DNA from: Alopecurus myosuroides
Taxonomy: Eukaryota > Streptophyta > Magnoliopsida > Poales > Poaceae
Direction: 5' to 3'
Assembly: GCA_028641055.1 (NCBI GenBank)
Contig: CM054063.1
Span: 41,797,304-41,861,303, forward strand
DNA length: 64,000 bases
The position numbers and the translations under genes are program-made. Each line of letters starts with the position of its first letter. Positions within the stretch are counted from its first letter, which is position 1. This document shows, in pieces, positions 23,801 to 59,746 of the stretch. The notes under the pieces were generated by a model. It did not search any database. It was not told the origin of the DNA and saw only the letters and a program-made list of their open reading frames with translations.

Positions 23801-25826
23801 GCAGCTGGGGGAGAAGGGAGTGTTTTGTCCTGAGCAGCATCCTGCGCATTCTGTTCTGCGCGGGCCTGCTGCTCCTGGTCCATGTCTTGGGCACCAGCAC
23901 CCGGGTCCTCGGCGTTGGTGTTTTCTTCTTCTTCCTTCCTGCGAGAGGGCGCGCGCGTCCTATCCCGTGTTGCTGGCTCATCCTCGCCCTCGGAAAGATC
24001 AATGAGCGCCTCGAGGTCGATGGCTGATTTTCTCTTGGAGGTGGAGGGAGCCGCAGCAGCATCGGCATCCAAAGGATCGCTGAAGGAGAAAGGGAGTTCA
24101 GAAAAAGAGGAGGGGAGGAGAACACCGAGAAGCAGCAGCATAGTGTGATTTAGAGGGAAATTACTTACCCTTTGCGGGTAGGAAGTGGCCTTCTGACGGA
24201 AACCTTCTTCTTCTTCTCGGGCTTCTTGGCCTTTTTGGCAACAGGCTCTTGGGCACCGCTACCAGCCCTCTTCCGAGTGGTAGGAGAAGCCACAGCGACA
24301 GGATCGACGTCGAGGACATCCTCGTCTTCCTCGTCCGCCTTAGGGTCATCTGCAGGGTAGAGGAGAAAAAGGAGTTGAGAAACGAAAAGGGAAATTGGAT
24401 TGCGCTACTCGCAACTAGAGAGGCGAACTCAATCACCTTCTTTGTCGTCCTCGGACCAGTCCCGAATGGACGCATCAGCTTGGTGCCTACCCGACTGATC
24501 GGCGCGAGGGACACAGAGGGTGGCCTGTGTGTCATAGGCGGTCTCGTCGTCCTCTTCCCGATCTTTGCTCCAATTGGCCTCGAAGCGCTCCTCATTTTCA
24601 ACGCGCTGACGATCAATGTGCTGGAAAGACAAGCAGGCAATACAAATCAGTTGAGCACAAGGCTAAGGAATCCTACCCAGTACGGAATGCCAACATAAAG
24701 CATATAAGGCCAGAAACTCCTACTCGGAATAGCATGCAAACACAACGCATATTTGGCTAAGATTCTCTACTCAACGTGGCGTGCAAACACAAAGCACATA
24801 AAGCCAACGAGATGCTAGTATTGTTCTACTCGGCGCAACATGTGAAGACTAAGCATACTAAGCTGGAGAGCCAACTACTCGGTATCAGAATGCAGAGACA
24901 AAGAGTAAAGGACTAACCTCCTCCATTGGCTTGTCGCGGCTATACGGCGCAAAGGCGTATTGCCAGTTGTCGGTGAGGCCAGTCATCATGATGGAACGCG
25001 CCCAGACGGCTACATCCGCTGTGCTCAGCTCGAATGTGGTGGTCCTCGTGCAGTCCCTGTTGCCTCCCATGTAACACATGATGTGGGTACGGCGCTGAAG
25101 CGGGAGCACTCGCCGCGAGATCCAACACGCGTTGGGATCATCGCGTTTGAATCCCAACTCCCTCAGCTCGGCGAGGCGCTTTTCGATCTGAAGGATATCG
25201 CCTTGCAGCCTCGGCTTGTATCCCCAATTCTGCTGGGTTGGTGGCGTGTTCGTCCACTTGGGGAGCCCAATCCGGTCAGTGACTTGCGCTCCTTCTTCAG
25301 CAGGAACATTCTTGACATAGAGGAAGGTGCGCTGCCACTTGCGCACCGTGTCGAGCCCCTTGATGCGCGGGTGGTTGACGGAGCCGCGCTGCAACATCAT
25401 TGCGCTTCCCGTCTTCGTCATGCTGCGGGAGCTCTCTGTGCTTCCGGACTTGGGGACGCTCTGCTTCCGGAAGATGAAGTAGCGCGCCCAGGTATGCACC
25501 GTTGGGCGCACACCCAGGAACGCCTCGCAGACCACGGCGTGGTACGCGAGCATCACCACGGCGTTGGGAGGCAGGTGGTGCGGCTGCAGCCCGAAGTGGT
25601 TCAGGAAATCCTTGAAGAAATCCGAAACGGGCAGGCCGAATCCTCGCTTGAAGTGGGCGAGGAAGACGATGAACTCGTCCGCCTCCGGCGTGGGGACGAT
25701 TTCGCCGTCCGGCTGCCTACACCGCATGCCGGGAGGAACACGGCGGGTATTTACCAACCATTGGCAATCCTCCGCCGTGACCTCAGATCCCGCCCAACCG
25801 GCGCGGGCGTCGTCATCGCAAGCCAT
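20816..25826 (-). pseudogene. Element A antisense gene, eight exons, broken
   Basis: Exons by GT-AG boundaries and alignment to C: 24918-25826, 24437-24620, 24169-24349, 22765-24079, about 22405-22561, 22240-22323, 21796-22164 and 20816-21690. Exon 1 encodes the N-terminal transposon-type domain (GLQPHHLPPNAVVMLAYH) and is open. Exon 4 has two in-frame stops (near 23535 and 23253). The exon 5 acceptor has changed from the CAG seen in B to CAA, so splicing there is probably lost. Exon 8 encodes a long Asp/Glu run (near 21150-21190) and ends in TATSN. A TATA-like box upstream (near 26015) reads GATAAATA, weaker than in B and C. Function unknown. Confidence 0.8.
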
Positions 25827-33700: not shown

Positions 33701-35558
33701 AGACCTATGCTGTAAGTGTCGTTTGCTTGTTCCGAGTTGCCACTTATCTTCTCTTGTATCCTGCATTTTCTCCTTATCCGTTACCCAGTCCCCGAGATTC
33801 GGGCCGAGTAGACGGGTACTCAACCGAGTTGCCGTCTTCTCGGGCCAAATCTTCAAGACACTGTCTAACTTCTTTTCTCTCTTCTCCACAGAATAGCCTC
33901 TTGAAGACGACAACCCTTTACCGGCGGCTGCTCTGGAATCACGCCATCGCCAAGAGGCGCCTTGAGGCCCTGAAAGCAGAACGCAAGAGTGATGCTTTTA
34001 CGGAGCAAGCGGCCCTGGACCATGCCCTCCAACTTTCAGAACTCGAGAGTAAGCTTCTAGCTATTCGGTTAATGTGTTTTGTGCTTACGCCCGTATTTGC
34101 TCTTTGCTCTAACTCCTTCTACTCTGCAGGAAAATTCAAGGCGATGGCAGAGGAACACAAACATTGCCATGTCTTCGTTGCTAATGCTGATACCACCATC
34201 AAGAAGATGGAAGGTGAGTTGCCGTCTGCTCTGCTCATTTTCCTCCTTTTCCTTTGCTACTCTGCTGACCGTGCTATTCTCTTCGCAGAAGATAACAAGA
34301 AGTTTCGTGAAGAGCATCTCGACTGTTTGAAACCTGCTGAGGTGCAGCAACAGCTGGCTAGCCGAGATGCGGAGATCAAGAATGAACGCGACACCGAGCG
34401 TGCCGAGTTCGAAGTCATGCAAGTGAAGCTGAAGGCCGCTCTCGAGGATGCCTTGGAGACCAGGATACTGAGCGCAGCCAAAGAGAGGACGCTCGAGACA
34501 GAGATCGCGGTGCTGAAGAAGAGCAACTCGGACCTCATGCTCCAGCTGGCCAATTGCCGTAAAGTTGAAGACATGCATGTTGCGGATGAGGAGGCTTGGA
34601 GGAGAAAGATGGAAGCTCTACTCTGCGAGCTTAACAGTAAGTTCGCGCTTCTCTGCACTTGCTCGTTTCCTTCTTCTTCTGTTTGGTTTGATTTGCATCT
34701 CTTCTCTGCCTCCGTTTCTAATCCTTTCTGATAGCATTTTCAGAAATCTTCCCTGACCTCTGCTCGGCTTGCACACCTGCCCTAACGAAGGCGCAAGAAA
34801 TTCGAGCTGAAAAAGTATTGCCCACGGATACCAAGTCTTCAATTGAGGACAATCTCATGAGCATGCAGGCACAGCTCCAGCGTCTTAGCGTCTTGGGCAC
34901 CGACTTGGTGTCCACCGCCTTCAAACTTCATGATCTGTTCTGGCCCCAAGACCCTGTGCCAAAGACCATCCGCGCGCTCTCCGAGAAGCTCAACGGTGTC
35001 AAAGCCGAGTTGAAGAAATGGCGTGCATCCGGAGCTCGGGCAGGCGCCGATATGCTACTCCTCTTCATTTGCAGCTGGTATGAAAACTTAAATCTCAATA
35101 CCATCCTTGAGCTGCACCGGGACTCGAAGTGGGAGTCCGATCCCGACTGCGTGACTCTCCGCAAGGCTGTCGCGTATGAGATCGCCTCCTACGCGGATAC
35201 CGCCCTCTTCATCGACAGCCTCACCGAGCCTGACACCGAGGCGGAAAGCGAGGGTGAGGATGAAGATGAAGACGAAGACGAGGACACCGAGTCGGAAGAC
35301 TTGGGCTGCTTTGAATACACAGGTGCTGAGGAGGTATCCGGGAAGGGGAAGATGGTGATCCAGGATGCAGATCCTGAGCTGGGCTCGTCTTCTGGCGCGG
35401 TCCTTGACGACGCGCCGCTACTCCGCACGCAGTACACTGCCTCTACTTCGGCTACGGACTCTATCTCGGTGGCCACTGCCACCTCTGAGCAAGCTGGTGC
35501 CAACCCTGAAGCCGATGGCGCAAATGCCAACTTGGAGAATACTGCTACTTCCAACTAG
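30792..35558 (+). pseudogene. Element B antisense gene, eight exons, broken
   Basis: ATG in CCATGG at 30792. Exons by GT-AG boundaries: 30792-31688, 31997-32180, 32268-32411, 32503-33711, 33892-34048, 34130-34213, 34289-34636 and 34744-35558. Exon 1 encodes the transposon-type N-terminal domain (LQPHHLPPNAVVMLAYHAV) but has TAG at 31272-31274 and TGA at 31494-31496. Exon 3 is shortened at its end relative to A. Exon 4 has frameshifts. Exon 8 retains the KKWRASGARAGAD block and an Asp/Glu run. The gene cannot make the full protein, but its splice sites remain almost all intact. Confidence 0.82.
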
Positions 35559-44465: not shown

Positions 44466-45375
44466 TGTCGGGGGGTTACCCCCGAGTAGGGTAAAGACAG
44501 GTGGTAAAGGCCGCGTACAAAAGAGAGGTTTGGCCGAGTAGCCGACTACCGGGTACTCGCTACCCGGTCGACTGCTACCCGGTCTCACCTCAAGATGGCC
44601 AGAAGGAGATATCAATCAGTTTCTACCATGTCGAGTAGAAGGTTTGGCCCGAGTACAATTGGCGGGAACATTTGGCGGGAAACTACTCGGGCAGGAAGTC
44701 AAAGGAGCCGTTCTGACACAGGATCCCGCGTATCCTGGGTCCGTACTTGGCAGCATTCGAACTACTGTTCACGTGGGGACGGCCTGCCTGACAGTGACAG
44801 CATGGAAGCAGTCGGTGGCAGGATAAGGGGGCCCTACTCTGTGACTAGGTACAGTGATACCAGTCTGTCCCCTAGTTTTGCCCAACGACTTTACAGAAGC
44901 AGCCAAGACCAACGACCAAAGCTGTCAGCGGGTACTCGGAGAAAGGACAGTGTGGACACTATGTCGACACTTGTCTAGGATTTGGACGTATCCGGCTGGG
45001 CACCATGTATATAAGGTGCACCGCCGCCTCCTGCGCGAGGCATGCTCATATGCTCCCATAGTGGCTCACTAGAAACCCTAGAAACCCTAAGTTCTTGACC
45101 TAGCTCTACTCGGAGAGGGGCAAGGGGCTACTCGGTAGCGTTACTATTTGTACTGTGGCTACTCGGTGAGACACCGTAATACATAGAGAAAGGCAGGAGT
45201 AGGGGTTTTACCTCCTCACGAGGGCCCTGAACCTGGGTACATCGTGTTGTTTGTGTTGTGTGGATCTTACCTCACGCGGCTACTCGTCGCGTGATCCCTC
45301 CCCGGACACCTCCAGCGTCCATCGTCCCCACATCTTTAGCCATCCCATGGCATCTGCCGTGACACCACCACGACA
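44466..45375 (+). repeat. Element C 5' LTR
   Basis: 910 bp, TGTCGGGGGG...CCACGACA. TATA box TATATAAG at 45008-45015, so transcription should start about 30 bases downstream, within the GC-rich 'ccgccgcctcctgcgcg'. The R/U5 part includes the block 'ggggttttacctcc...gaacctgggta' (45191-45240) shared with D's LTR. The gag ATG is at 45347-45349. The 127-codon open frame at 44595-44978 is identical in both LTRs and lies in U3; I do not regard it as a gene. Confidence 0.94.
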
Positions 45376-48300
45376 GTTGGCGCCCACCGTGGGGCAACCA
45401 GCGGCGCTGGCTGGAGTTACTGTTCGGACGGGATCTTCATCTGCGGAGCGCGTAGTTTGTGGCCTTGTCCACAGATTCGGCTCCTTCGACTTCGTCACCG
45501 ACAACGCCGGCTGTTTCGGCGGCAAGGCCATGCCGGAGGGCGGCTCGGTGATCTCCTTCGGCTCGCATCTCGTCTACGTCGCCACCGTCGCCAACGATGC
45601 CTACCCCGAGCTGGTGCACGACGCGGAGGATCCTCCCGCGGTTGTTGCTGCTCGTGGAAGGCCTGCATGCAGCTCTGCGTGCTGCGCTGAGGTGATGGTG
45701 ACGGGCGTGGCGGCAAACGTGGGCGCAGCTGCTACTGGCGCTGCGGCCGTCGTCGAGGAGGTTGACGACCCGCCCGCGGGTGGCAGGACCCACCGGCCTT
45801 ACGAGAAGGAGAGCAACCTGCCACCTTCCACGTCTACGGTCATCCCCGCGTCTGCAGCGCGAACCGGCATGCCCACGCCCACCGACGTCGAGCTCCTAGC
45901 CGTGCGGGAGCAACTCGAGCGGCAACGCCAGGAACTGCTCGCCGAGCAGGCGGAGTTGGAGAAGATCAGGCTTGAGCTGAGTCTAGACCAGCTCGAGTAC
46001 AACAAGGCTCACGGCTTCACGCCGGTGACCAGGAGGCCTAGCAGGGTAGGCGCTACGCGGCGCAACCTAGGCGCCGAGATGGCGACTGTTGCGGAGGAGC
46101 CCGCGCAGTCCGCCACCGCGAACACCTTCACAAGGCCAAGGTATAGCACACCCGCCAAGACGCTGCGAGCTGCGGAGGCTGTGGCTGCCGAGTTGCCGCG
46201 CCTAGAGGGAGAGGCGCGTCGCAGGCAACAGGAGAGGCTTGGCGAGCTGGTGCTGGAGGCCGCCAGGCAGAACGAGGAGTTCCGGAAGGCCAACCCGGGA
46301 GCTGGAGCTTCGCAGGTGGTGCACTCGCACGCGGCTAGATCTAACGATCAAGCCTCATCTCCGCATCCTAGCCGCGAGAAGAGCCGCAGCGGGCGTACGG
46401 GGAGAGACAGGCAAATGCAGGTGTATGACCCGGCTGCTGCCGCGAAACAGGTTGTTGTGCCGCAGCAGCCCGGGCAGGAACACAACGCTGCAAGAGCAGG
46501 CTCTCAAGTCCATCAAGCTCAAAGCCGTGTCCGAGAAGCCGCACGTCCGGGTACTTCTCGGCAACCCGCAGCTCCGCCTACTCGGCAGAGGCAGCAGCCG
46601 CGCCCAGTGGCACCAGTCGCCAACCCGGTGGAGCAGCCAGCTGCTATGCAGGTGGATAGGTATGATGATGGCTACTCGGCTATGGAGATGGCTGGTTATG
46701 ACATCCATGACCGTGTCGGTGAGCGCGTGTTGGCGCCTGGAGATGCAAGGCACCAGCTGGACCGTATCAGCTTGTCGGCGCGGCTTGAGAGCACGGGTCC
46801 TCCTGGCCCCGAGTGCTTTGGCCCGCGCATCATGAACGAGCCGTCCGTGAAGGGCTTTCAGCTCGCAAGAGGCACCAAGAGCTACAATGGTAGCACCAAG
46901 CCTGAAGATTGGCTCAACGACTACGTCACCGCGGTCCATATCGCGAATGGCAACAGGAGATGGGCGGTGCGCTATGTGCCGCAGATGCTAGAGGGTCCAG
47001 CTCGCACTTGGCTCAACAACTTGCCCAAGAACAGCATTAACTGCTGGCTGGACTTCTCGGATGCCTTCATCAGCAACTTCACCAGCACCTACAAGAGGCC
47101 GAATAGGCCACAGCAGTTGTCGGCTTGCCGGCAGCGAGAAGACGAGACGGACCGCGAGTACCTTACTCGGTGGAGCACCTTGAGGAACACCTGTGAGGGC
47201 GTGAATGAGGCGCAGGCCATCACTTGGTTTGCGCAGGGTTGCCGACATGGCAGCATGCTTTGGCAAAGATTGCAGAGGGAGATGCCCAACACCCTGGCCG
47301 AGACCATCAAGATTGCGGATCAGTACGCACTCGGTGATCCTACTCAGCCACTGATGGATTCCTCTGAGCCGAGAAGAAACTTCAACAGCAGCAAGCGCAA
47401 CGAGTTCCGCAACAAGCGCCGAGTAGATGCTCGGTATGATCCCGAGGAGGTGAATGCAGTGAATATCGGAGGCGGTGGTGGCCAAAGGCAAAAACCTGCT
47501 GGAGCCTACGGGCAGAACCAGAACCAGGGCCAAGGCAACAAGAAACCGTTCCGCACTGCGCAGTCGGGTAGCGGGAACTCCGAGCAGCCGAAGAAGTTTG
47601 TCTTCGATGACATGAAGGATGGCCCATGCAGCTTTCATACTCATCACCCCTCAAGGCCTGCGAACCACACTACTCGGCAATGCGAATGGTGGGATGTGAT
47701 CAAGAGTGATGGCTTGCCTCCTCCACCTCCTCTGCCAGCCGCGAATGCCACTGTTCAGCCTACTCGCGCTCCCGCAGCTCGGCCGCCAGTCTATCCGAGA
47801 AGAGAGAATGTCAACCAGGTGGCTTTAGGAGCCAACCAGAACTTCAACAATGAGAGATACCGCAACAACAACAACAACTACAACCGCAACAACAACAACA
47901 GAGGCAACAACAACTATCAGGGCAACAACAATGGCAACAATGGCAACAATGGCAACAACGGGGGCAATGGCCCTAACCAGTACCAAGAGCACCATGAGAG
48001 CTATATGATCTTCACTTCCGAGGCAGTCGACAAGCAGTCACAGCACAGGCGGGCCATGGAGGTCAATGCAGTGATCCCGGCTGTACCTCACTACATGTAC
48101 TGGTGTGACCAGGAGATCAGGTGGACTCGGGCAGATCACCCCAAGGTGATGCCCAATCCGGGTACCTATGCCTTGGTGCTGGATCCCACCTTCTTGGGCC
48201 CCGAGAAGAATGTGAGGTTCAGCAAGGTGCTGATCGACAACGGCAGCAGCATCAACATTGTGTACAAGGATACACTCGAGAAGCTTGGCCTGGCCGAGAA

Positions 48301-48817
48301 CATGATGCTGCCCAGCAAGACCACTTTCCATGGCATCGTGCCCGGGATCTCCTGCAACCCGGTTGGCCGAGTGTGGATTGATGTGCTATTCGGTACTCGG
48401 GAGAACTGCCGTACTGAGCGTCTGCAGTTTGAAGTGGTGGATCATCAAAGCCCCTATCATGCTCTACTCGGCAGGCCTGCTCTGAGCAAGTTCATGGCCT
48501 CCACCCATGTGGCTTACCTGAAGATGAAGATCCCCGGGCCCAACGGCATCATCACCATCTCGGGAGATTACAAGAAGTCCATGGAGTGTGCCTCTGCTAG
48601 CTCTCAGCTGGCGGAATCGATGGTGATTGCTGCCGAGAAGAAGAAGATGTACGAGGTGGTGGCCATGGCTCAGTCCGCACAGGCTGGAGCACAAGGTGTG
48701 CCGAGTACTCAGCATGGTACTGCTTTCCAAGCTGCCAAGGAGACCAAGGCAGTCCAGGTTGACCCCGAGTTCCCGGAGCGCGTGGCCATCATTGGTGCCG
48801 GGTTGGCCGAGAAATAG
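45347..48817 (+). CDS. gag-pro: Element C gag-protease polyprotein (1,156 aa)
   Basis: Starts at ATG in CCCATGG at 45347 inside the LTR and reads through the primer site (PPRQLAPTVGQPAA). An upstream in-frame ATG at 45251 exists but lies in a poorer context; start choice also follows B. Order: Pro/Ala-rich N-terminus with a coiled coil near residues 185-220; retrotransposon gag core about residues 520-650 (WLNDYVTAVHIANGNRRWAV); Cys/His cluster about residue 760 (CSFHTHHPSRPANHTTRQC), possibly replacing a usual zinc knuckle; Asn/Gly-rich tract about residues 830-875; aspartic protease core with DNGSS at residue 964 (DNG rather than DTG/DSG). It forms the capsid and processes the polyprotein. 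Ends in TAG at the gag/pol boundary. Confidence 0.93.
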   Translation: MASAVTPPRQLAPTVGQPAALAGVTVRTGSSSAERVVCGLVHRFGSFDFVTDNAGCFGGKAMPEGGSVISFGSHLVYVATVANDAYPELVHDAEDPPAVVAARGRPACSSACCAEVMVTGVAANVGAAATGAAAVVEEVDDPPAGGRTHRPYEKESNLPPSTSTVIPASAARTGMPTPTDVELLAVREQLERQRQELLAEQAELEKIRLELSLDQLEYNKAHGFTPVTRRPSRVGATRRNLGAEMATVAEEPAQSATANTFTRPRYSTPAKTLRAAEAVAAELPRLEGEARRRQQERLGELVLEAARQNEEFRKANPGAGASQVVHSHAARSNDQASSPHPSREKSRSGRTGRDRQMQVYDPAAAAKQVVVPQQPGQEHNAARAGSQVHQAQSRVREAARPGTSRQPAAPPTRQRQQPRPVAPVANPVEQPAAMQVDRYDDGYSAMEMAGYDIHDRVGERVLAPGDARHQLDRISLSARLESTGPPGPECFGPRIMNEPSVKGFQLARGTKSYNGSTKPEDWLNDYVTAVHIANGNRRWAVRYVPQMLEGPARTWLNNLPKNSINCWLDFSDAFISNFTSTYKRPNRPQQLSACRQREDETDREYLTRWSTLRNTCEGVNEAQAITWFAQGCRHGSMLWQRLQREMPNTLAETIKIADQYALGDPTQPLMDSSEPRRNFNSSKRNEFRNKRRVDARYDPEEVNAVNIGGGGGQRQKPAGAYGQNQNQGQGNKKPFRTAQSGSGNSEQPKKFVFDDMKDGPCSFHTHHPSRPANHTTRQCEWWDVIKSDGLPPPPPLPAANATVQPTRAPAARPPVYPRRENVNQVALGANQNFNNERYRNNNNNYNRNNNNRGNNNYQGNNNGNNGNNGNNGGNGPNQYQEHHESYMIFTSEAVDKQSQHRRAMEVNAVIPAVPHYMYWCDQEIRWTRADHPKVMPNPGTYALVLDPTFLGPEKNVRFSKVLIDNGSSINIVYKDTLEKLGLAENMMLPSKTTFHGIVPGISCNPVGRVWIDVLFGTRENCRTERLQFEVVDHQSPYHALLGRPALSKFMASTHVAYLKMKIPGPNGIITISGDYKKSMECASASSQLAESMVIAAEKKKMYEVVAMAQSAQAGAQGVPSTQHGTAFQAAKETKAVQVDPEFPERVAIIGAGLAEK
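45377..45394 (+). other. Element C primer-binding site (tRNA-Lys)
   Basis: TGGCGCCCACCGTGGGGC begins two bases after the 5' LTR. It is complementary to the last 18 bases of plant tRNA-Lys(CUU) with CCA. It is also translated as part of gag, so its sequence is under double constraint. Confidence 0.85.
48815..48817 (+). promoter_or_regulatory. Conserved in-frame UAG between gag-protease and pol
   Basis: The context is GAG AAA TAG GAA. The frame is open before (to 45347) and after (to 52369). The same codon in the same context is in A (16738-16740) and B (39656-39658, minus). Related gypsy proteins, as I recall them, run through this place without interruption (GAGL..K.E..L..FLREN.DVFAW), so the TAG replaces or adds one codon. 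Termination suppression would give a gag-pol fusion at low level. Confidence 0.75.
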
Positions 48818-51800
48818 GAAAGCGCGCTCATCCACTTCCTCCGTGAGAATCGGGATGTTTTCGCCTGGACCAATGAAGATTTACCAGGAGTCCCGAGGGA
48901 GTTGGTTGAGCACTCTTTGCATGTGCGTCCTGACGCCAAGCCCGTGAAGCAGGCCTTGCGCCGTTTCGGGGATGAGAGAAGGAAGGCCATCGGTGATCAA
49001 ATCACCAAGCTGCTGATCAGTAACTTCATCATGGAAGTGCTGCACCCGGACTGGTTGGCCAACCCGGTCATGGTCGAGAAGAAAAAGGAAGATCCCAAGG
49101 CTGCCACCGCATGGCGCATGTGTGTCGACTACACCGACTTGAACAAGGCATGCCCCAAGGATCCTTTCCCGCTACCTCGCATCGATCAGGTGATCGACTC
49201 CACTGCCGGCTGTGAGCTGTTGTCTTTCATAGATGCTTACTCTGGTTTCCACCAGATTGCACTCAACCCTGCTGATCAAATAAAGACTACTTTCATTACC
49301 CCGTACGGGGCTTATTGCTATCGTGTCATGTGTTTTGGCCTGAGGAACGCGGGTGCAACCTATCAGAGATGCATGCAGAAATGCTTGCACGACCAACTCG
49401 GCAAGAATGTGCAGGTGTACGTAGATGACATTGTCATCAAAACGAATAAAACACATACTCTGCTTGCCGACTTGGAGGAAACCTTTGCTAACCTACGCAG
49501 GTACAAAATGAAACTGAATCCGAGTAAGTGCACCTTTGGTGTACCAGCTGGAAAGCTACTCGGTTTCCTGGTTTCTAGTCGGGGCATTGAAGCCAATCCG
49601 TCTAAGATAAAAGCTATTGAAAGCATGTCTTTGCCGAGATCATTGAAAAATGTGCAGAAGTTCACGGGTTGTTTGGCATCTCTGAGCCGTTTCCTAGGCC
49701 GAATGGGCGAGAAAGCTCTGCCTCTGTACCAGCTGATGAAGAAAAGCGACAAGTTTGTCTGGACCCCGCAAGCGGATGTGGCATTCAATGAGCTGAAAGC
49801 AATGTTGGCTAGCGCTCCTGTCCTGGCTAGTCCGCTACCCAAGGAGCCTATGCTGCTATACATTGCCGCGACTAACCGAGTAGTCAGCGTGGTGATAGTG
49901 GTGGAGCGAGAAGAAGAAGGCAAGAGTGTGCAGCGCCCTGTGTACTATTTGAGTGAGGTGTTGTCGAGCTCCAAGCAAAACTATCCACATTACCAGAAGA
50001 TGACATATGGTGTGTACCTGGGCGCCAGGAAGCTGAAACATTACTTCCAGGAGCATCCCATCACTGTTGTGAGCTCGGCTCCCATTTCTGACATCATGGG
50101 CAACAAGGAGGCAAGTGGCCGAGTAGCAAAGTGGGCAATTGAGCTAGCCGCGTATGCTCCCGCGTATACGAGAAGAGAAGCAATCAAGTCTCAGGTACTG
50201 GCGGAATTTCTTGTGGACTGGGCCGAGATGCAGTATGAACCTCCCGCTCCAGTTTCCAACTATTGGAAGATGCACTTTGATGGCTCAAAGGTGAAAGAAG
50301 GCCTTGGTGCTGGCGTTGTGCTTACATCGCCCAAGCGGGATCAGCTCAAATATGTGATGCAGATTCATTTCAAGGCATCCAACAATGTAGCCGAGTACGA
50401 GGCAGTGGTGCATGGTTTGCGAGTAGCAAAGGAGGTTGGTGTGCAACGCATTATCTGCTATGGCGACTCAGATCTGGTGGTGCAGCAAGTCTCAGGTACC
50501 TGGGATGCCTTGGATGCCAACATGGCGTCGTATCGCTTCCTGGTGCAGTCAATGACTGGGTTTTTCGAAGGCTGTGAGTTCCAGCACATTCGCCGAGCAG
50601 AAAACGAAGCAGCAGACGAGCTGTCCAAGTTGGGATCTTCTCGGCAGTCCATCCCAGCAGGGATTGCCTTGGAGCATTTGAGGAAGCCATCCATCGAGCC
50701 TTCCCCCAACTCGGAATCCATCTTTGTTCCCTCTCTGCCAAGTGAAGAATCAGACCCAATGGAGATTGACTGGGAGAGTGCTGCAGGGAACCCGGGGACT
50801 GCCGTCCTATACTCGGGGACTGCCGTTCCCTACCCGGGGACTGCCGTCCTATACTCGGGGACTGCCGTTCCCTACCCGGGGACTGCCGTTCCCTACCCGG
50901 GGACTGCCACTCCCTACTCGGGGACTGCCATTCCTTACTCGGGGACTGCCGCCCTTAACCCAGAAGCAGTTGCATTCATTGAAGAAGTTCTCGCCAATCG
51001 ATCTGGGCTGCAGAGAAGCGCTCCTACTCCTCCTGTGCAACCACCAGAGCCTGTCCCAATGGAAATGGACGAACCAGTGTTTCCCGTGCGGGAGACACCG
51101 AGTTGGGCAATGCCCATATTATCCTTTCTAAGGGACGGTACTTTACCTGAAGATGAGGTGACTGCGAGGCAGATTCAGAGAAGATCCAAGGGCTACGCCT
51201 TAGTCCGAGACGTGCTGCACAAGAGAAGTGCCACTGGTGTGCTGCAACGCTGTGTGAGCCCAGAGGAAGGAGAAGAAATCCTGGTGGAGATACATCAAGG
51301 GGAATGTGGGCATCACGCCTCTTCTCGGGCTTTAGTCAAGAAAGCTTTTCGGCATGGCTTCTACTGGCTCACTGCATTGCAGCAAGCTGAGGACATTGTG
51401 AGGAAGTGCGCCGGCTGCCAGATGTTCGCAAGTAAGATTCACATGCCAGCATCCGAGTTGAAAACAATTCCTATCACATGGCCTTTTGCTGTTTGGTGCC
51501 TGGATATGGTTGGCCCTTTCAAGCCGGCTAAGGGCAATATGACACATATCTTGGTCATGGTGGACAAGTTCACCAAGTGGATCGAGGTGAAGCCTATTCG
51601 GAAGTGCGATGGAGTCACAGCCGTGAAGTTTGTGAAAGATGTGATCATGAGATATGGCTACCCGCACAGTATCATCACCGACAACGGCACCAACTTTGCA
51701 GAGGGGGCAATGGTGCGATTTTGCAGAGATAAGCATATCCGACTAGACGTTGCGTCAGTCGCGCACCCTGCCTCCAATGGGCAAGTTGAGAGAGCGAATG

Positions 51801-52369
51801 GGATGGTACTGGCAGGCATCAAGCCGAGGCTGATTGAGCCACTGCTGAAAACACCTGGGTGTTGGCTAGAAGAGTTGCCAGCGGTGTTGTGGAGTCTAAG
51901 GACTACCCCTAACCGGTCAACCGGCTACACGCCATTCTTCTTGGTATACGGGGCTGAGGCCGTGTTGCCAATAGACTTAGAGCATGACTCCCCCCGAGTA
52001 GCCCTCTACACTGAGGTGGAGGCGAGAGAAGCTCGAGAAGACGACGTTGACCTGCTTGAAGAAGCAAGAGAGCTGACTCTGTCACGTTCGGCTATCTACC
52101 AGCAAAACCTGCGGCGCTATCATAGCCGAAAGGTGAACCCAAGGGTTTTCCGAGAAGGAGACATGGTCCTTAGGCTTGTGCAGCGCACAGCCGGGATGCA
52201 CAAGTTGTCTCCTCCGTGGGAAGGGCCTTTCATTGTCAGCAAAGCGCTGCACAATGACGCGTACTATCTTGTAGATGTGCGCCCATCGCAGGCGAACAGG
52301 GCAGATAAAGCTGGAGAGGAAACCAAGCGTCCCTGGAATGTAGCTCTACTTCGTCGTTTTCATTCGTAA
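48818..52369 (+). CDS. pol: Element C pol: RT, RNase H, second RNase H, integrase (1,183 aa)
   Basis: Same frame as gag, with no own ATG near the start, so expression probably depends on passing the TAG. Reverse transcriptase: YVDD encoded at 49418-49429 (about residue 201). RNase H: about residues 340-420. A second RNase H of the archaeal-like type known in Tat elements: FDGS about residue 486, AEYEA, GDSD about 549, ENEAADELSKL about 594. Then a linker of 8-residue repeats (about 656-711). Integrase: H-H near 830 and C-x2-C near 865, catalytic Asp 896, Asp 955 and Glu 991 (D-x35-E), C-terminal domain ending LLRRFHS. The enzyme copies element RNA and inserts it. All key residues are present. 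Confidence 0.94.
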   Translation, partial: ESALIHFLRENRDVFAWTNEDLPGVPRELVEHSLHVRPDAKPVKQALRRFGDERRKAIGDQITKLLISNFIMEVLHPDWLANPVMVEKKKEDPKAATAWRMCVDYTDLNKACPKDPFPLPRIDQVIDSTAGCELLSFIDAYSGFHQIALNPADQIKTTFITPYGAYCYRVMCFGLRNAGATYQRCMQKCLHDQLGKNVQVYVDDIVIKTNKTHTLLADLEETFANLRRYKMKLNPSKCTFGVPAGKLLGFLVSSRGIEANPSKIKAIESMSLPRSLKNVQKFTGCLASLSRFLGRMGEKALPLYQLMKKSDKFVWTPQADVAFNELKAMLASAPVLASPLPKEPMLLYIAATNRVVSVVIVVEREEEGKSVQRPVYYLSEVLSSSKQNYPHYQKMTYGVYLGARKLKHYFQEHPITVVSSAPISDIMGNKEASGRVAKWAIELAAYAPAYTRREAIKSQVLAEFLVDWAEMQYEPPAPVSNYWKMHFDGSKVKEGLGAGVVLTSPKRDQLKYVMQIHFKASNNVAEYEAVVHGLRVAKEVGVQRIICYGDSDLVVQQVSGTWDALDANMASYRFLVQSMTGFFEGCEFQHIRRAENEAADELSKLGSSRQSIPAGIALEHLRKPSIEPSPNSESIFVPSLPSEESDPMEIDWESAAGNPGTAVLYSGTAVPYPGTAVLYSGTAVPYPGTAVPYPGTATPYSGTAIPYSGTAALNPEAVAFIEEVLANRSGLQRSAPTPPVQPPEPVPMEMDEPVFPVRETPSWAMPILSFLRDGTLPEDEVTARQIQRRSKGYALVRDVLHKRSATGVLQRCVSPEEGEEILVEIHQGECGHHASSRALVKKAFRHGFYWLTALQQAEDIVRKCAGCQMFASKIHMPASELKTIPITWPFAVWCLDMVGPFKPAKGNMTHILVMVDKFTKWIEVKPIRKCDGVTAVKFVKDVIMRYGYPHSIITDNGTNFAEGAMVRFCRDKHIRLDVASVAHPASNGQVERANGMVLAGIKPRLIEPLLKTPGCWLEELPAVLWSLRTTPNRSTGYTPFFLVYGAEAVLPIDLEHDSPRVALYTEVEAREAREDDVDLLEEARELTLSRSAIYQQNLRRYHSRKVNPRVFREGDMVLRLVQRTAGMHKLSPPWEGPFIVSKALHNDAYYLVDVRPSQANRADKAGEETKRPWNVALLRRFHS
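50785..50955 (+). repeat. 24-bp minisatellite in pol linker
   Basis: About eight tandem units of roughly 24 bp of the type 'cggggactgccgttccctac' encode repeats like SGTAVPYP between the second RNase H and integrase. A has about four units and B about five at the same place, so the copy number changes between copies without breaking the frame. Confidence 0.88.
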
Positions 52370-53043: not shown

Positions 53044-56000
53044 TCAGGTTGAGGAGGCAGTGTTCTCGGCGCTGGCATGGGCAGTTGTTTCCTCGACGGC
53101 TGTCTTGGCAGCAGTTTCTTCGGCGGTGGCTTTCTCGGCAGCTTCTTCGTTGTTGGTGGCGCCCGTTTCCGCCTGCATGGCGGCGGACTCATCCACCTCA
53201 ACATCATCCTGGGTGGCCGTCTGCTCGGATGTAGCTGTGGCCACCGAGATGGGGCCTGGAGCCGAAGAGGAGCCAGCGGTGTGGCTAGGAGGTGGCACCG
53301 TGTCGTCAAGAGCAGCACCCGAGGAGGTGCCGAAGTCGAGTGGCTCGCTGTCGATGTGCGCCCCTTCGTCTTCATCGCTACTCGCGACGACGGTGGCCTT
53401 GCCCTTCCCAGCTTTGCCCTTGGGAGATTCGAAGTACTCCCCAAGTTCCTCCTCATCGTCATCTTCGTCGTCCTCGTACTCGGTGTCGGGTTCGGGGACG
53501 CCATCGATGTAGACCTCCGTCTCGGCGCACTCTGCGACATCATATGCAATCTGCTTGCGCAAGGCCACGCTGTCGGCATCAGTCTCCCACTTGGAGTTAT
53601 TGCGCTTCCCGCGGATGAGCTGCATATCCAGGTTCTCATACCAGGACGCAATGCAGAGAAGCATCACGTCCGCACCAGCACGGGCTCCGGAGGCTCGCCA
53701 CTTCTTCAACTCGGCCTTCACGCCTTCCAGCTTGAGGGCGAGCGCCCGCATGCTTTTTGGCTCAGGATCATGGGGCCAGAACAGCCGGTGGAGCTCAAAG
53801 CCCGCATGCATCAAATCAGTCCCGCAGCCGGCCAGCTGTTCGAAGTAACCTTTGAGCACCACCAAGCTGTCCTCGATATCAGCCCTGGTGTCAATCGGCT
53901 CACCCAGCGAGAGGCGAACTGCTCGGGCCTTGGCTATCGTGGGCGCAGAGGTAGACTCAAGACGAGGCCAAATATCTGAAATAGCAAGTGGCAAGATCAA
54001 AAAACCTAGATAGAAAAAAGGAATCCGAGAAGGAATAAGACCGAGAAGAAAAGATGCAAGGAAGAAAAGAACTTACCGACTAGTTGGCGGCGCAGCTGCT
54101 GCAGCTTGATTCTCCAGGATTCCTCGTTGCTAATCTGCTTTGATTGGACCTGGCGCAGGGTGTCCATCTGAGCGAAAAGATCAGCATTGGTTTTCTTCAG
54201 AGTCTCGCACTCAGCCTCGAGGGCCCTCTCCTTGGCCTTGAAAGTGGTCTCGGCCTTGGCTTTCTCGGCGATGGCCGCGTCCCTCTCGGAGCCAATCTTC
54301 ACGGCGTCTTGGAGTGCTTGCTGAAGTCGGAGCTGCAGGGACTCCATCTCGGTGGTGTGGTCCTTCACCAGGGCTACGGCCTGGTCAGACAGCTGCTTTT
54401 CCACCGCTGCTGGCTGGACGCAATCTTGGTGCGCCTCAGCAAATGACTTATAATCTTCTGCGAAAAGATAAGATGAGGTCAGTAAGCGGGCAGAGAAGAA
54501 CCGAGTTCAAGGACATACCGAGTAAAACAGCAAACTCACCTTCAAGTTTCTTTATGGTGGCCTCGGCGTTCGCCACGAAAGCGCGGCACTTCTCGTGCTC
54601 GTCGACTAGGGCCTTCAGGTTAGCTGCAGAGAAGGAAAGGTTAGTGCCAAAGAAAGCAGGAGCGGGCGTAAAAATAAAACGCAGAAACCGCGTAGCTAAA
54701 AGGCCTACCCTGCACTTCAGCCAGCTGCTGGCTGCTCTCATTGGCGTTTTTGCTTGCGGCCTCGGCATCTGCCTTCTCTTTCTCCAGTGCGGTGATGCGT
54801 CTCCTGGCGATGGAGTGGTTCCAGAGAAGGATGCGGTACAAGTTGGTCCGCTTGAGAACGCTATCCTGAAAACCGAGAAGAAAATGAGTTAGGCAAAGCA
54901 GAGAAGATTCGGTCCGAGTAGGAGGCTACTCGGAGAGTATCCACCTACTCGACCCAAATCTCGGGGACTGGGAGTGATGGTGAGAAAGAAGAAAGGCGAG
55001 TAGAAGAGAAGAAAATTCAACTCGGAAAAGGCAAAAAGACTTACTGCGTAGCTCTGTTCGATATCTTCGGCATTCTTGCGATGCAAGAACATCTTGGCTG
55101 CGAGGGTTGCGGTATCGGTGGAGACGGACATGGGCTGGTGTCCCAGGTCGATCTTGTTCCACTCCACGCGGTAGTGGTCGACGGAGCCAAGGGTCAAGCC
55201 GTGCCACTTCTCCTCACCGAGAACCCCGCTGTCCCACTTGGCGCTGATGTAGCCGACAGTATCCAGTACCTGCTCAAGACCCTTGGAGGTTATTGGCTTG
55301 TCTTGGGGTCCTCGAGAAGCAATATTGACGGGTTTATTCTGGGCTGGATCGAAGGGAGGAGTATTCCTGGCTACTGCTTTCCTCCCCTTCTGAATAGCTA
55401 CAGCTTTATCTTGGGGAGGGAAGCCGATGCTATGTTGGTGGCTAACCTCAATCATATATTCCGGGTAGCAAGGCTGGCCAGCAGCGCGAGCGCCCGCAGA
55501 GAGTGCAGCAGGAATCGGGCCGGAGTCGCGGATCACGAGTGCTCCGCCTGCAGATGCGCCTTGCTCTCTGGCCCTTTTCTTCGTCTGCTCCTTCTCGATC
55601 TTCTGCTTCTCGGGGTCCTCGGGTTTCTTCCCCTCTGTCTTGGCCTTTGCCTTCTCGGCGACTGCTTCCTCGGCAGCTCGCTTCTCGGCTTTCTTCTGTT
55701 CAGCCCTGGCCTTCTTCTGCTCGGCCTTGGCTCTCTCAGCAGTTTCTTTCTCGGCTTTGGCCTTCTCGGCGGCTTCCTCCTTGGCCTTGGCCTCCTCGGC
55801 AGCCACCTTATCGGCAGTCTTCTTCTCAGAAGGGCCCTTCTCGGAGCAGTAATCCCTCAGAGCGTCAAGGGCCCGTTGCCTGGTTACTCGCCCAGGAGGG
55901 CTGGAGGTGTCCTTACTCTGTGGCGACAAGGAAGATGTCGGCGGTGTAGGGTCTTGCGCAGTTGGTGGCGCTGCAGACCCGTCGCCCAGGGCAGTTTCTA

Positions 56001-58153
56001 GCTGGGCGCTACTCGGAACGCCGCCTGGCAACGGATAAACATCCGTGACGGTGGCGTCCGCAGCGGTGTTGTCTCCTACTTGCTGCTCGGCAGCAAGATT
56101 GTCTCGTGCACCAGCCTCTGTGCTGGTTTGCTCTTGTTCTACTTCAGGCCGCTCGGGGGCGGCAGTGTCTGGCATATCCTGGTCTCGGACCTCCTCGGCA
56201 TTGCTAGCCGGAGGAGAAGGTGGTCTTTCGGGGTGGACGGCAGCGTCCTGAGCTACCGCTTCTGATCCTGCTCCCTGAGCGGAAGTGATCGGTGCTTTGG
56301 CGGCAGCAGCGTGGGCAGTGTTGTCCTCCTCGTCGTCATCGACGTTGATCAGAGGAATTGGAGTTTCCTTGGCTTGGCCGGATGCGCAAGCGGCGTTCAC
56401 GTCCAGGGGAGCTCTGCGGAAAGAGGAGAAGGGAATCAGGAATTGGAAGAAAATGGGGAAAATGGTACTGCGCGAGAAGAAAGACGACCGGGAAGGAAGC
56501 TTACGCGGTAGTGGAAGAGAGCTGTTTCCTCTTTCTCTTCGTGGTGAGCTTGGTGGGCTTCTTCTTCTCGGGGGTCTCTCCCTCCTCGGCGGGCTTCTTC
56601 TTCTTCTTGGCAGGGGGCGCTTGTGCTTCGCCGCCTGTCCGTTTGCGGGTTTCGGGAGGGGCAACCGACAGAGGCTTGACGACAAGGGGCGCATCGCCCT
56701 CGTTCTCGCCCTCATCCTCGTCGTCCTTCCCCGCAGCGGCCTCATCTGAGAAATTCAAAGGAAAGAAGAAGTGAATCAGAAATAGCAATACAAGGAGTTG
56801 ATGCTTCCCGGAAACAAGCAAGATGAGGATGCTATTACCGTCAGAGCCGTCGTCCGCCCAAGTGTTAAGGACGTCGCGTTTCTCGGGAACGGGGCTGCTC
56901 TGCTCCGAGTCATCAGAGGGGGGTACATCATCCTCCTCGCGATCCTTGGACCAGTTGTCCTCGAAGACCTCGCTGCTTTCAGTGAGCTGGCGAGTAAGAG
57001 TCTGAAAGGCAGAGAAGGATCACAAGTTAGCCGAGTACCAGAAAAGAACTCTACTCGGGTAGGCGTGCACCCACGAAGCACACTGAGCCTAGGCTTTTTT
57101 CTAAGTTTCCTACTCGACGAGGCGTGCAGGCACAAAGCACACTAAGCCTAAGGCGATTTAGCTAAGTGTCCTACTCGGTGCACAAGGGGATTGCTAGTCG
57201 AGGCGAAAAGAGAAGTTATCTACTCGGAAGGCAGAGACGAAAACAGAGTAAGGGAGACGTACCCGTAAGATTGGAGTCCTACGGCTGAACGGGAGGAACC
57301 CGTACCGCCACTTCTCGTTGAGGCTGGTCTTCAGGATGTTCCTGGCAAGCCGGGGAACGTCAGCGTCGTCGATCTCGACGGTGGTGGTCCTGGTGCAATC
57401 GCGAGGCCCTCCCATGTAACACATGAGGTGGCATCGCTCCTGCAGAGGGAGCACCCGGCGTTTGATCCAGCACGCTACTGGATCGTCATTCCTGAGGCCA
57501 TGCGTCTTCAGCCAGGCGAGTTGCGTTTCTATCTCGGTGGCATTCTCGTCGTTGACGGGCTTCTCCTTCCAATTCGACCCGAGTGGAGCACGCTTGCTCC
57601 AAGGGGGCAGGTTGATCCGATCGTCGACGGGGGCTCCATCAGCGGCGGCAACGTTCCTCACGTAGAAGAACGTTTGCTGCCACATTCGGCAGGAATCCAG
57701 CCCCTGGATGCGGGGGTGGTTCGTCCCGTTCCGCTGCACCATCATGGCGCAGCCGACGTCGGTGGCGCGGGGAACGCCCGCGCTGTCCTTCTTCCCGACG
57801 GATTGCTGGCGAAGATGGAAGTAGTGGAGCCACGTCTCCACGGTGGGCCTGATGCCGAGGAAAGCCTCGCACACCACGGCGTGGTATGCGAGGAAAACGA
57901 CTGCATTGGGCGGCAGATGGTGCATCTGCAGCCCGAAGTGATTCAGGAACTTACGCATGAAGTCCGATGCTGGCAGCCCGAACCCGCGCTCGAAGTGGGA
58001 CATGAACACCACGCGCTCTCCGTCCCTGGGCTTGGGCACGACCTCGTCGCCGGGTGCCCGGCACTCCACGCCGGGGGGAACCCTTCTCTCGTTCACGAGC
58101 CAGGCGAGGTTGGCTTGGGTGATGGAGGAACCGGCCCAGCAGGACTTGGCCAT
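53044..58153 (-). CDS. Element C antisense gene, eight exons, intact (1,405 aa)
   Basis: ATG at 58153 (ACCATGG). Exons: 57263-58153, 56839-57001, 56505-56745, 55045-56413, 54709-54865, 54540-54623, 54077-54457, 53044-53975; all introns GT-AG. Summed exon length is 4,218 bases, exactly 1,406 codons with the stop, and phases agree at every junction. Exon 1 (residues 1-297) resembles the 'putative gypsy type transposon' domain (Transposase_28), with HFERGFGLPASDFMRKFLNH and LHYFHLRQQS. Exons 2-3 are acidic then basic (PAKKKKKP, possible nuclear signal). Exon 4 has a long Ala/Glu/Lys coiled coil. Exons 5-7 are further coiled coil. Exon 8 has KKWRASGARAGAD and acidic runs. No transposase catalytic site is seen. 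Role unknown; a nuclear or chromatin-related accessory protein is a guess. Confidence 0.85.
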
Positions 58154-58313
58154 GGTTGCGAGTGGAAGAATCGGAAATCAAACGGGGTTGGTGGTGGAGC
58201 GAGTCCGCGGCGGCGCAGAGGCTAGCGCGGCGGCGGAGCGCTCGGTGGCGGAGAAGAACGGGAGGAAGAAGAGGAAATGAGCAGGGAAGGGGAAAAGAGA
58301 GTTACCGCGGGGG

Positions 58314-58321
58314 TATTTATA
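58314..58321 (-). promoter_or_regulatory. TATA box of C antisense gene
   Basis: Minus strand TATAAATA (58314-58321) in the context GGTATAAATACCCCC, 161 bp upstream of the ATG. B has the same sequence in the same place. It lies about 515 bp inside the 3' LTR and points away from it, so the gene appears to have a promoter separate from the LTR. Confidence 0.68.
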
Positions 58322-58818
58322 CCTCCCCAGCGAGATTACCGTTACCGCTGCGGGAGTGGGATCGATTGTGGCGTGTGGTGGGTCCTGTGGCCGGCTAGAA
58401 ACGCACACACGCGAGAACCGCGGGCGTAACGGCCGCATTGGATCCCACTACAAGATCGTGGCCAGTAAATGTACTTGATGGGACATGACGGCCGGTGGGC
58501 CCACGGCGTGAAAACTGGACACGTGGCGTCGTGTCCTGGGCAACCAAACGACAAGGTCGTGGATGCTTGACACGTAGGCAGAGCCTGCGTGAAGGGCTGG
58601 ATGTTGCTCTGCGCTGCAGAGGCTCAGTTTGCGAAATTTCGCTAAGTCTTTTTACTCGGATACAGAGTAGAAAACCAGTGCTACTCGGAAAGGGGAGACT
58701 CAAGATACTTTCCGGATAGCTACTCGGAGGACCTACTCGGCATCTTGAGGTTCGATGGCTGAGATGCAAAGGCTGGTTTTAAGCTGGCAGAGCCTAGTGA
58801 ACAAGTTCGCAAGACTCA

Positions 58819-58836
58819 ACCAGCTTCGGGGACTGC
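58819..58836 (+). other. Element C polypurine tract region
   Basis: AACCAGCTTCGGGGACTGC directly precedes the 3' LTR. The G-rich core CGGGGA is the likely plus-strand primer. The same phrase precedes the 3' LTR in A (26471-26487) and B (30088-30105, minus). Confidence 0.6.
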
Positions 58837-59746
58837 TGTCGGGGGGTTACCCCCGAGTAGGGTAAAGACAGGTGGTAAAGGCCGCGTACAAAAGAGAGGT
58901 TTGGCCGAGTAGCCGACTACCGGGTACTCGCTACCCGGTCGACTGCTACCCGGTCTCACCTCAAGATGGCCAGAAGGAGATATCAATCAGTTTCTACCAT
59001 GTCGAGTAGAAGGTTTGGCCCGAGTACAATTGGCGGGAACATTTGGCGGGAAACTACTCGGGCAGGAAGTCAAAGGAGCCGTTCTGACACAGGATCCCGC
59101 GTATCCTGGGTCCGTACTTGGCAGCATTCGAACTACTGTTCACGTGGGGACGGCCTGCCTGACAGTGACAGCATGGAAGCAGTCGGTGGCAGGATAAGGG
59201 GGCCCTACTCTGTGACTAGGTACAGTGATACCAGTCTGTCCCCTAGTTTTGCCCAACGACTTTACAGAAGCAGCCAAGACCAACGACCAAAGCTGTCAGC
59301 GGGTACTCGGAGAAAGGACAGTGTGGACACTATGTCGACACTTGTCTAGGATTTGGACGTATCCGGCTGGGCACCATGTATATAAGGTGCACCGCCGCCT
59401 CCTGCGCGAGGCATGCTCATATGCTCCCATAGTGGCTCACTAGAAACCCTAGAAACCCTAAGTTCTTGACCTAGCTCTACTCGGAGAGGGGCAAGGGGCT
59501 ACTCGGTAGCGTTACTATTTGTACTGTGGCTACTCGGTGAGACACCGTAATACATAGAGAAAGGCAGGAGTAGGGGTTTTACCTCCTCACGAGGGCCCTG
59601 AACCTGGGTACATCGTGTTGTTTGTGTTGTGTGGATCTTACCTCACACGGCTACTCGTCGCGTGATCCCTCCCCGGACACCTCCAGCGTCCATCGTCCCC
59701 ACATCTTTAGCCATCCCATGGCATCTGCCGTGACACCACCACGACA
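58837..59746 (+). repeat. Element C 3' LTR
   Basis: 910 bp, one difference from the 5' LTR noticed. TATA box at 59379-59386. Followed by GTAGC (59747-59751), the target duplication. Confidence 0.94.

What the first reader, a model, noticed from the sequence alone, without database searches (positions are those of the whole stretch)
53044..58836. Intact eight-exon antisense gene with its own promoter inside a young retrotransposon
Seen: eight minus-strand exons with GT-AG introns join with correct phases into 1,405 codons; a TATA box lies 161 bp upstream of the ATG; the gene sits between pol and the 3' LTR of element C. Introns in a retrotransposon are unexpected because they are removed when the sense transcript is copied. 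An antisense gene avoids this, since its introns are not recognised on the genomic RNA. Known: antisense ORFs at this place exist in Tat-lineage elements such as Grande and Retand. Inferred: this one is a full host-style gene unit with conserved purpose. Its product has a transposon-type N-terminal domain and long coiled coils and has no assigned function.
Basis: partly seen in the sequence, partly recalled or inferred. Interest (0 to 1): 0.88.

Follow-up and report, generated by a model that had tools for sequence, protein, structure and literature searches.

The report
Spliced antisense gene inside a retrotransposon
A young, probably grass retrotransposon carries on its reverse strand a split gene with seven introns that selection appears to have kept, and the element is studded with one short DNA word that this gene's protein might use to recognise its own element.

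Summary
Eight minus-strand exons (58153-53044) join into 1,405 codons in an element whose LTRs differ at one aligned site. Two diverged copies in the window (46-48% amino-acid identity) keep the introns: 6 of 6 alignable donors in each, 5 of 6 and 6 of 6 acceptors. dN/dS between those copies is 0.38 (exon 1 0.21). So this is a selected, spliced gene by inference; no RNA was available. Antisense TRP28 (PF04195) genes are a known Retand hallmark, and an own promoter is reported for Grande gene23. I saw seven conserved introns described in none of my literature searches; a December 2025 review says plant LTR elements generally lack introns. Beyond the finding, the three elements are studded with one octamer, CCGAGTAG (13, 20 and 33 copies against about 0.3 in shuffles; none in the 19.75 kb tested outside), dense in LTRs and introns, nearly absent from C's antisense exons, and in non-coding parts more conserved between C and the others than its surroundings. 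[quoted passage not shown] That link is a hypothesis; I have no binding or methylation evidence.

The parts
57263..58153 (-). Exon 1 of the antisense gene, 297 codons, carries PF04195 (Transposase_28/TRP28) at residues 48-116
56839..57001 (-). Exon 2
56505..56745 (-). Exon 3, with lysine-rich runs that look by eye like a nuclear localisation signal
   Evidence: no NLS predictor was run
55045..56413 (-). Exon 4, variable linker (A-B dN/dS 0.54) then a more conserved block (0.30)
54709..54865 (-). Exon 5, helical/coiled-coil-like by eye
54540..54623 (-). Exon 6, helical/coiled-coil-like by eye
54077..54457 (-). Exon 7, helical/coiled-coil-like by eye
53044..53975 (-). Exon 8, conserved C-terminal domain also found in Lolium and Festuca proteins
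57002..57262 (-). Intron 1, with a 59-bp x 2 tandem repeat and three exact CCGAGTAG
56746..56838 (-). Intron 2
56414..56504 (-). Intron 3
54866..55044 (-). Intron 4, 73-75% identical to A and B, more than any exon (52-64%); two exact CCGAGTAG
54624..54708 (-). Intron 5, 69-73% identical to A and B
54458..54539 (-). Intron 6
53976..54076 (-). Intron 7
58315..58321 (-). TATA box TATAAAT of the antisense gene, the same in B, GATAAAT in A
58322..58836 (-). Presumed antisense promoter region, 72% identical to A and B (exons 52-64%)
44466..45375 (+). 5' LTR of element C; six exact CCGAGTAG
58837..59746 (+). 3' LTR of element C
45203..48817 (+). stop-to-stop gag frame of C, ending in TAG (Pfam shows gag; protease presumed, no Pfam hit)
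48818..52369 (+). RT-RNase H-RVT_3-integrase frame of C, same frame as gag
50790..50955 (+). 21-bp x 7.8 coding tandem repeat in pol, built of CGGGGACT and variants of CTACTCGG
20818..25826 (-). Copy A of the antisense gene, seven introns, decayed (two in-frame stops, one lost acceptor)
30792..35558 (+). Copy B of the antisense gene (element B on the minus strand), intron sites kept, decayed (four stops, two frameshifts)

Best explanation
An accessory gene of a Retand/Tat-type Ty3 retrotransposon, transcribed from its own TATA promoter on the strand opposite to gag-pol and spliced through seven introns. The introns persist through retrotransposition because the genomic RNA carries their complement, which the spliceosome does not read. 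The product (TRP28 domain, basic NLS-like stretch, variable linker, presumed coiled coils, conserved C-terminal domain) most likely enters the nucleus, oligomerises and acts in trans on copies of its own element. My preferred mechanism is recognition of the octamer CCGAGTAG, dispersed through LTRs, introns, promoter region and pol, to keep or regain transcription against host silencing, as VANC proteins do for VANDAL transposons. Shown by sequence: exon joining, intron conservation, purifying selection, the octamer, its non-coding bias and its conservation. Inferred: splicing, expression, promoter use, nuclear location, oligomers. Hypothesis: the protein binds the octamer, and binding counters silencing. 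My split: real selected spliced gene 0.93; octamer is a selected cis-element 0.75; bound by this protein 0.35; anti-silencing role 0.25.
For: Gene: 1,405 codons. Introns conserved. A-B dN/dS 0.38 (bootstrap 0.32-0.45), exon 1 0.21 (0.13-0.30), exon 8 core 0.27 (0.16-0.44); third-position excess 28/19/63 in exon 1. Of the 95 grass proteins found, 57 match both an exon-1-wide stretch and the C-terminal domain; the first stretch ends at residue 294 in 71 (exon 1 ends at 297); the C-terminal stretch starts at 1097 in 8 of the 57, the commonest start (exon 8 starts at 1096), in the others mostly elsewhere. Octamer: A 13, B 20, C 33 against shuffle maxima of 2, 2 and 3 in 100; outside 0; no preference beyond the eight bases; C non-coding 16 in 3,159 bp against antisense exons 1 in 4,218 (Fisher p about 1e-5). 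Non-coding motif columns beat non-coding background: C-A 74/85 against 0.65, C-B 81/88 against 0.65; GC-matched random windows reach the observed value in 0.0008 and 0 of 5,000 draws; exonic motif copies show no such excess. LTR: C-A 0.96 against 0.73, C-B 0.91 against 0.74. Fast protein: C-A identity 0.46 against pol 0.91.
Against: No RNA, protein or methylation data. Pfam shows no other family than PF04195, the exon-1 model has no fold match in the PDB, and sequence search of the PDB gives only weak hits, best E 0.016 to long-helix proteins outside TRP28; DNA binding rests on a prediction reported in PMC11963269 and on analogy. The octamer also occurs in gag-pol (10 in 6,870 bp). Its orientation is biased: 14 of 55 on the element-sense strand, p about 4e-4. 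Between A and B motif columns are no more conserved than background (0.86 against 0.85). All three elements share one octamer, so co-variation of protein and octamer is untested; the diverged TRP28 fragment D has none in its presumed pieces. A second octamer, CGGGGACT, is dispersed too, 28 of 28 in sense orientation, so dispersed words here can have other causes; counting one LTR only, a word of that family outranks CCGAGTAG in C. The promoter region is no more conserved than LTRs or the 3' flank (72% against 71-74%). The C-terminal tail has dN/dS 0.85 (0.52-1.48).
Confidence: 0.4

Rival explanations
1. The protein is a nuclear accessory factor of retrotransposition (import of the pre-integration complex, RNA export or integration targeting), and CCGAGTAG is unrelated to it, for example sites for a host factor that drives the LTR.
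For: NLS-like runs; nuclear location reported for Grande gene23 and roles like retroviral accessory proteins suggested (PMC7264820, passages). The octamer is conserved in LTRs.
Against: A host LTR activator does not explain sites in antisense introns, the region upstream of the antisense gene, and pol.
Confidence: 0.3
2. The antisense transcript, not the protein, matters: it pairs with genomic RNA and tunes copy number or feeds siRNA. The reading frame is a passenger.
For: The gene span (about 5 kb) is complementary to the genomic RNA; PMC7264820 raises dsRNA as a possible role (passages).
Against: dN/dS 0.21-0.38, third-position excess and conserved splice sites point to selection on the spliced protein.
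Confidence: 0.07
3. The octamer is a by-product: a word spread by local tandem duplication and recombination among elements without function.
For: It sits in a tandem repeat in intron 1 and in variant form in the pol array; a second word, CGGGGACT, is also dispersed; orientation bias; no excess conservation between A and B.
Against: No sequence preference beyond the 8 bp; non-coding motif columns more conserved than non-coding background between C and A or B, while exonic copies are not; strong non-coding bias.
Confidence: 0.2
4. Dead relic: the open frame of C is intact only because C is young; the gene has no present function.
For: A and B are decayed.
Against: A and B diverged with dN/dS well below 1 and C, from another branch, is intact.
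Confidence: 0.05

Closest known systems
Retand-lineage TRP28 antisense ORFs (PMC11963269, Vicient 2025; part 1 of 5 of the text and passages seen)
   Same: Antisense, between pol and 3' LTR, PF04195 domain; pol-to-LTR length here 6,467 bp, inside the reported 2,933-6,566 bp.
   Different: That survey counts ORFs; words beginning with 'intron' do not occur in its main text. Here one eight-exon gene joins TRP28 to a C-terminal domain, with intron positions conserved, in elements with a dispersed octamer.
Grande gene23 (Gomez-Orte 2013; title and review passages seen, paper not held)
   Same: Antisense accessory gene with its own promoter; nuclear product.
   Different: Whether gene23 has introns I could not check.
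VANC proteins of VANDAL DNA transposons (PMC5735166, PMC10398659; passages seen)
   Same: Element-encoded gene with exons and introns, protein with conserved and highly variable parts, short family-specific motif in non-coding parts, partly in tandem repeats.
   Different: No sequence relation found by Pfam; different element class; here most motif copies are single; no binding or methylation data.
Introns in plant LTR elements: Ogre, EVADE (PMC12786077, passages seen)
   Same: Introns and splicing in an LTR element.
   Different: Those introns serve subgenomic RNAs of the element's own transcript (that they are sense-strand is recalled); here all seven are antisense.

Membership tests
Retand/Tat-lineage element with TRP28 antisense ORF | ORF antisense to gag-pol between pol and 3' LTR | tested here: met
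Retand/Tat-lineage element with TRP28 antisense ORF | PF04195 domain in the antisense product | tested here: met
   E 9.4e-21, 74.3 bits against cut-off 26.2
Retand/Tat-lineage element with TRP28 antisense ORF | long pol-3' LTR region (2,933-6,566 bp in PMC11963269) | tested here: met
   52370-58836, 6,467 bp
Retand/Tat-lineage element with TRP28 antisense ORF | reverse transcriptase clusters with Retand in a tree | not tested
   no reference RT set at hand; only the domain order RT, RNase H, RVT_3, integrase was seen
Retand/Tat-lineage element with TRP28 antisense ORF | antisense transcription from own promoter (reported for Grande gene23) | not testable with these tools
   only a TATA box shared in B and nearly in A, and a region as conserved as other non-coding parts
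VANC anti-silencing system | protein homologous to VANC | tested here: not met
   by Pfam only: PF04195 and nothing else; that VANC belongs to another Pfam family is recalled; no VANC sequence was compared directly
VANC anti-silencing system | short motif accumulated in non-coding parts of the element | tested here: met
VANC anti-silencing system | motif arranged in tandem repeats | tested here: inconclusive
   59-bp x 2 repeat in intron 1 and a 21-bp array in pol with motif variants; other sites lie outside the arrays listed
VANC anti-silencing system | protein binds the motif and removes DNA methylation | not testable with these tools
   needs EMSA, DAP-seq or ChIP, and methylomes
LTR element with sense-strand intron (Ogre/EVADE type) | intron in the gag-pol transcript | tested here: inconclusive
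   gag and pol are open single frames that need no intron, but sense splicing cannot be excluded without RNA; the seven introns described here are antisense

The most novel reading that the evidence does not exclude
A self-recognition and anti-silencing system in an LTR retrotransposon, independent of VANC. An antisense, intron-bearing gene that retrotransposition cannot strip of introns makes a fast-evolving nuclear TRP28 protein. The protein binds CCGAGTAG sites scattered over its own element's LTRs, introns and pol, and keeps copies of its family open for transcription. TRP28 genes would then be the answer to what Retand antisense genes do, and element lineages should carry matching pairs of TRP28 protein and octamer.
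Probability: 0.25. Interest if true: 0.92.

Novelty: new variant of a known kind. Interest (0 to 1): 0.72.

Why it matters
According to PMC11963269 nearly all recently active Retand clusters carry a TRP28 antisense gene of unknown function. Showing that it can be a spliced, selected gene explains how introns can live in a retroelement, and means that surveys based on single ORFs may split or truncate such genes. The CCGAGTAG finding turns an open question (what does the protein do?) into a direct test: does it bind this octamer, and do protein and octamer co-vary across families? If so, LTR retrotransposons evolved sequence-specific anti-silencing on their own.

Tried and rejected

Flaws in my own scripts: one search prints '20 shuffles' where five were run (repeats it with 100); the r=0 rows are a bug and that call is not used; one search's aligner placed one spurious intron in B. 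One search used a background that mixes exons and introns; one search repeats it with non-coding background only, which is the one to trust. dN/dS values come from translation-guided alignment of decayed copies (codons with stops dropped); C-A and C-B synonymous sites are near saturation, so only A-B ratios should be leaned on.
Full report
WHAT WAS CHECKED. The finding claims an eight-exon minus-strand gene of 1,405 codons between pol and the 3' LTR of element C. I located the exon borders and joined them: 4,218 nt, 1,405 codons and a stop, no internal stop, seven GT-AG introns of 82-261 nt. Exons run 57-63% GC, introns 37-50%. Element C is young and structurally complete as far as seen: LTRs 99.891% identical over 914 aligned bases, target-site duplication GTAGC, Pfam gag in one open frame and RT, RNase H, RVT_3 and integrase in the next, the two parted by one in-frame TAG. 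Pfam shows no protease.

IS IT MORE THAN CHANCE? The window holds two further copies of the gene, A (minus, 25826-20818) and B (plus, 30792-35558), in other elements of the same type. They share 591 of 1,276 and 588 of 1,236 aligned residues with C. A spliced protein-to-DNA aligner that I wrote, with freedom to put introns anywhere, returned in A seven introns with the same phases as in C, six at the same residue and one 5 residues off; in B six at the same residues and phases, missing intron 3 and adding one spurious intron. On the three-way DNA alignment the donor GT is present in A and B at all 6 alignable introns. The acceptor AG is present at 5 of 6 in A (intron 4 has AA) and 6 of 6 in B, allowing a one-base shift at intron 1. 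Intron 3 is present in both as GTAAGT...CAG, displaced by about 20 bases at its donor. Exonic GT and AG of C survive in A and B at only 26-32%. Introns at these places therefore predate the split of lineages that are about half different in protein.

SELECTION. Between A and B (1,182 codons, 68% identical residues) dN/dS is 0.38, bootstrap 0.32-0.45. By region: exon 1 0.21, exons 2-3 0.34, first part of exon 4 0.54, second part 0.30, exons 5-7 0.34, exon 8 core 0.27, C-terminal tail 0.85 (0.52-1.48), not distinguishable from neutral. Differences in exon 1 fall 28/19/63 on codon positions 1/2/3 (chi-square p 4e-7). The gene evolves far faster than the rest of its element: C-A amino-acid identity is 0.46 here, 0.91 in pol (1,131 codons) and 0.84 in the 340 gag codons that A keeps (C-B gag 0.80 over 1,149), and dN is 0.49 against 0.05 in pol. 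C-A and C-B synonymous sites are near saturation, so I lean on A-B.

UPSTREAM REGION AND PROTEIN. The sequence from the TATA box up to the LTR is 72% identical between C and each of A and B, against 52-64% in exons; the 3' flank (71-73%) and LTRs (73-74% outside motifs) are as conserved, so this does not single out the promoter. The core GGGGAGGTATAAATACCCCC of C is in B; A has GATAAAT. Exon 1 carries PF04195 (E 9.4e-21); nothing else in the protein matches Pfam at E 0.01. Residues 353-430 hold lysine-rich NLS-like runs in C, and shorter ones in A and B. Coiled coils and NLS were judged by eye. Searches found 71 and 87 proteins, 95 in all, every one named from Lolium multiflorum, L. perenne or Festuca glaucescens; the first search scored only the 7,994 candidates sharing most words. 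Of the 95, 57 match both an exon-1-wide stretch and the C-terminal domain. The N-terminal stretch ends at residue 294 in 71 of 95, next to C's exon-1 end at 297. The C-terminal stretch most often starts at 1097 (8 of 57), next to C's exon-8 start at 1096, but 1123, 1128 and others are almost as common. These are annotated gene models whose RNA support and exon borders I have not seen; they support the joined architecture, not each junction. The exon-1 model (pTM 0.73) has no relative among solved structures.

WHY INTRONS CAN BE THERE. The genomic RNA that is packaged and copied carries the reverse complement of these introns (CT...AC), which the spliceosome does not cut; that is established splicing knowledge, not a result here. 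C's near-identical LTRs show a recent round of reverse transcription, with all introns in place. A December 2025 review says that plant LTR elements generally lack introns, naming Ogre and EVADE as exceptions (PMC12786077, passages). The 2025 Retand survey has no word beginning with 'intron' in its main text. The 2020 review asks that antisense and spliced transcripts be looked for (PMC7264820, passages).

THE OCTAMER. While comparing introns I saw that intron 4 is more conserved (73-75%) than any exon and rich in the word CCGAGTAG. It is the most frequent octamer in the 45 kb that hold A, B and C (66 copies). Per element: A 13, B 20, C 33, where 100 dinucleotide shuffles give means of 0.25-0.33 and maxima of 2, 2 and 3, and a third-order Markov model expects 1.4-2.5; the 19.75 kb tested outside hold none. 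By over-representation score it ranks third, third and first among octamers of A, B and C (second in C if one LTR is left out) and is absent from a control LTR element at 2.7-13.1 kb. Bases beyond the eight show no clear preference, so these are separate sites rather than copies of one long repeat. In C the non-coding parts (one LTR) hold 16 in 3,159 bp, the antisense exons 1 in 4,218 bp (Fisher p about 1e-5), gag-pol 10 in 6,870 bp (p 0.002 against non-coding); introns alone 5 in 892 bp. A's antisense gene has 5 in introns and 2 elsewhere, B's 3 and 0.

IS THE OCTAMER SELECTED? In LTRs motif columns are 0.96 (C-A) and 0.91 (C-B) identical against 0.73 and 0.74 elsewhere. In the gene region, with non-coding background only, they are 74/85 (C-A) and 81/88 (C-B) against 0.65; GC-matched random non-coding windows reach the values seen for C's sites in a fraction 0.0008 and 0 of 5,000 draws. 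Columns within a site are not independent. Copies inside exons show no excess (9/24 against 0.58; 4/8 against 0.58), and between the closer pair A and B there is none either (48/56 against 0.85; LTR 0.92 against 0.87). Sites are also gained and lost: 4 of 6 C LTR sites are exact in A, 2 of 6 in B; in the gene region 2 of 11 and 4 of 11. Some sit in local tandem repeats: 59 bp x 2 in intron 1, and variants in a 21-bp x 7.8 array coding a pol linker. A second word, CGGGGACT, which lies at the 3' LTR edge, is dispersed too, but 28 of 28 copies are in sense orientation, as expected of an RNA or priming signal. CCGAGTAG occurs both ways with a bias (14 of 55 on the sense strand, p about 4e-4), which fits double-stranded DNA better but not perfectly.

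MECHANISM. VANC proteins of VANDAL transposons bind short family-specific motifs accumulated in the non-coding parts of their own elements and cause loss of DNA methylation; they have highly variable regions, and their target regions form tandem repeats that diverge rapidly (PMC5735166 and PMC10398659, passages). The parts found here (a selected but fast-evolving gene, a likely nuclear product, a private octamer in LTRs, introns and upstream region) are what such a system would leave. TRP28 is not a VANC relative as far as Pfam shows, so the claim is 'works like', not 'is a'. PMC11963269 reports that a predictor gives TRP28 DNA-binding capacity. I put binding of the octamer by this protein at 0.35 and an anti-silencing role at 0.25. 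Rivals are an import or integration factor with an unrelated octamer (0.30), and a functionless octamer spread by duplication (0.20).

NOVELTY. The antisense TRP28 gene and its own promoter are known kinds. I saw seven conserved introns and the octamer described in nothing that my ten library searches listed or that I opened. That library holds open-licence papers only, and the key Grande paper is not in it, so an earlier report of introns in gene23 cannot be excluded.

Noticed in passing
43965-44465 and 59752-60150 (minus): Both flanks of element C match exon 1 of another, more diverged TRP28 gene (D; 37.7% identity to C over residues 12-115), so C sits inside it; element B (TSD GGTGG) abuts the same piece, its other side is not recognisable. 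The presumed D pieces hold no CCGAGTAG but the 7-mer CGAGTAG four times against 0.38 expected.
   Followed up: partly
48815-48817: gag and pol of C are in one frame parted by a single TAG; B's gag frame ends at the same residues, so stop-codon readthrough is possible.
   Followed up: no
A, B, C; e.g. 50793-50940, 52434, 52861, 54962, 58827: Octamer CGGGGACT occurs 28 times in the window, all in element-sense orientation and all inside the three elements; it equals the sequence at the 3' LTR edge, perhaps extra priming-like sites.
   Followed up: partly
50790-50955: 21-bp coding tandem repeat (7.8 copies) in pol of C between the RVT_3 and integrase regions; A and B show fewer CGGGGACT units there.
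   Followed up: partly
54866-55044 and 54624-54708: Introns 4 and 5 of the antisense gene are more conserved between elements than any exon, which suggests a function at the DNA or sense-RNA level.
   Followed up: partly
1243-1624: 191-bp perfect tandem duplication.
   Followed up: no
2733-13121: Direct repeats about 9.06 kb apart, probably LTRs of another element, without the octamer; used as a control.
   Followed up: no
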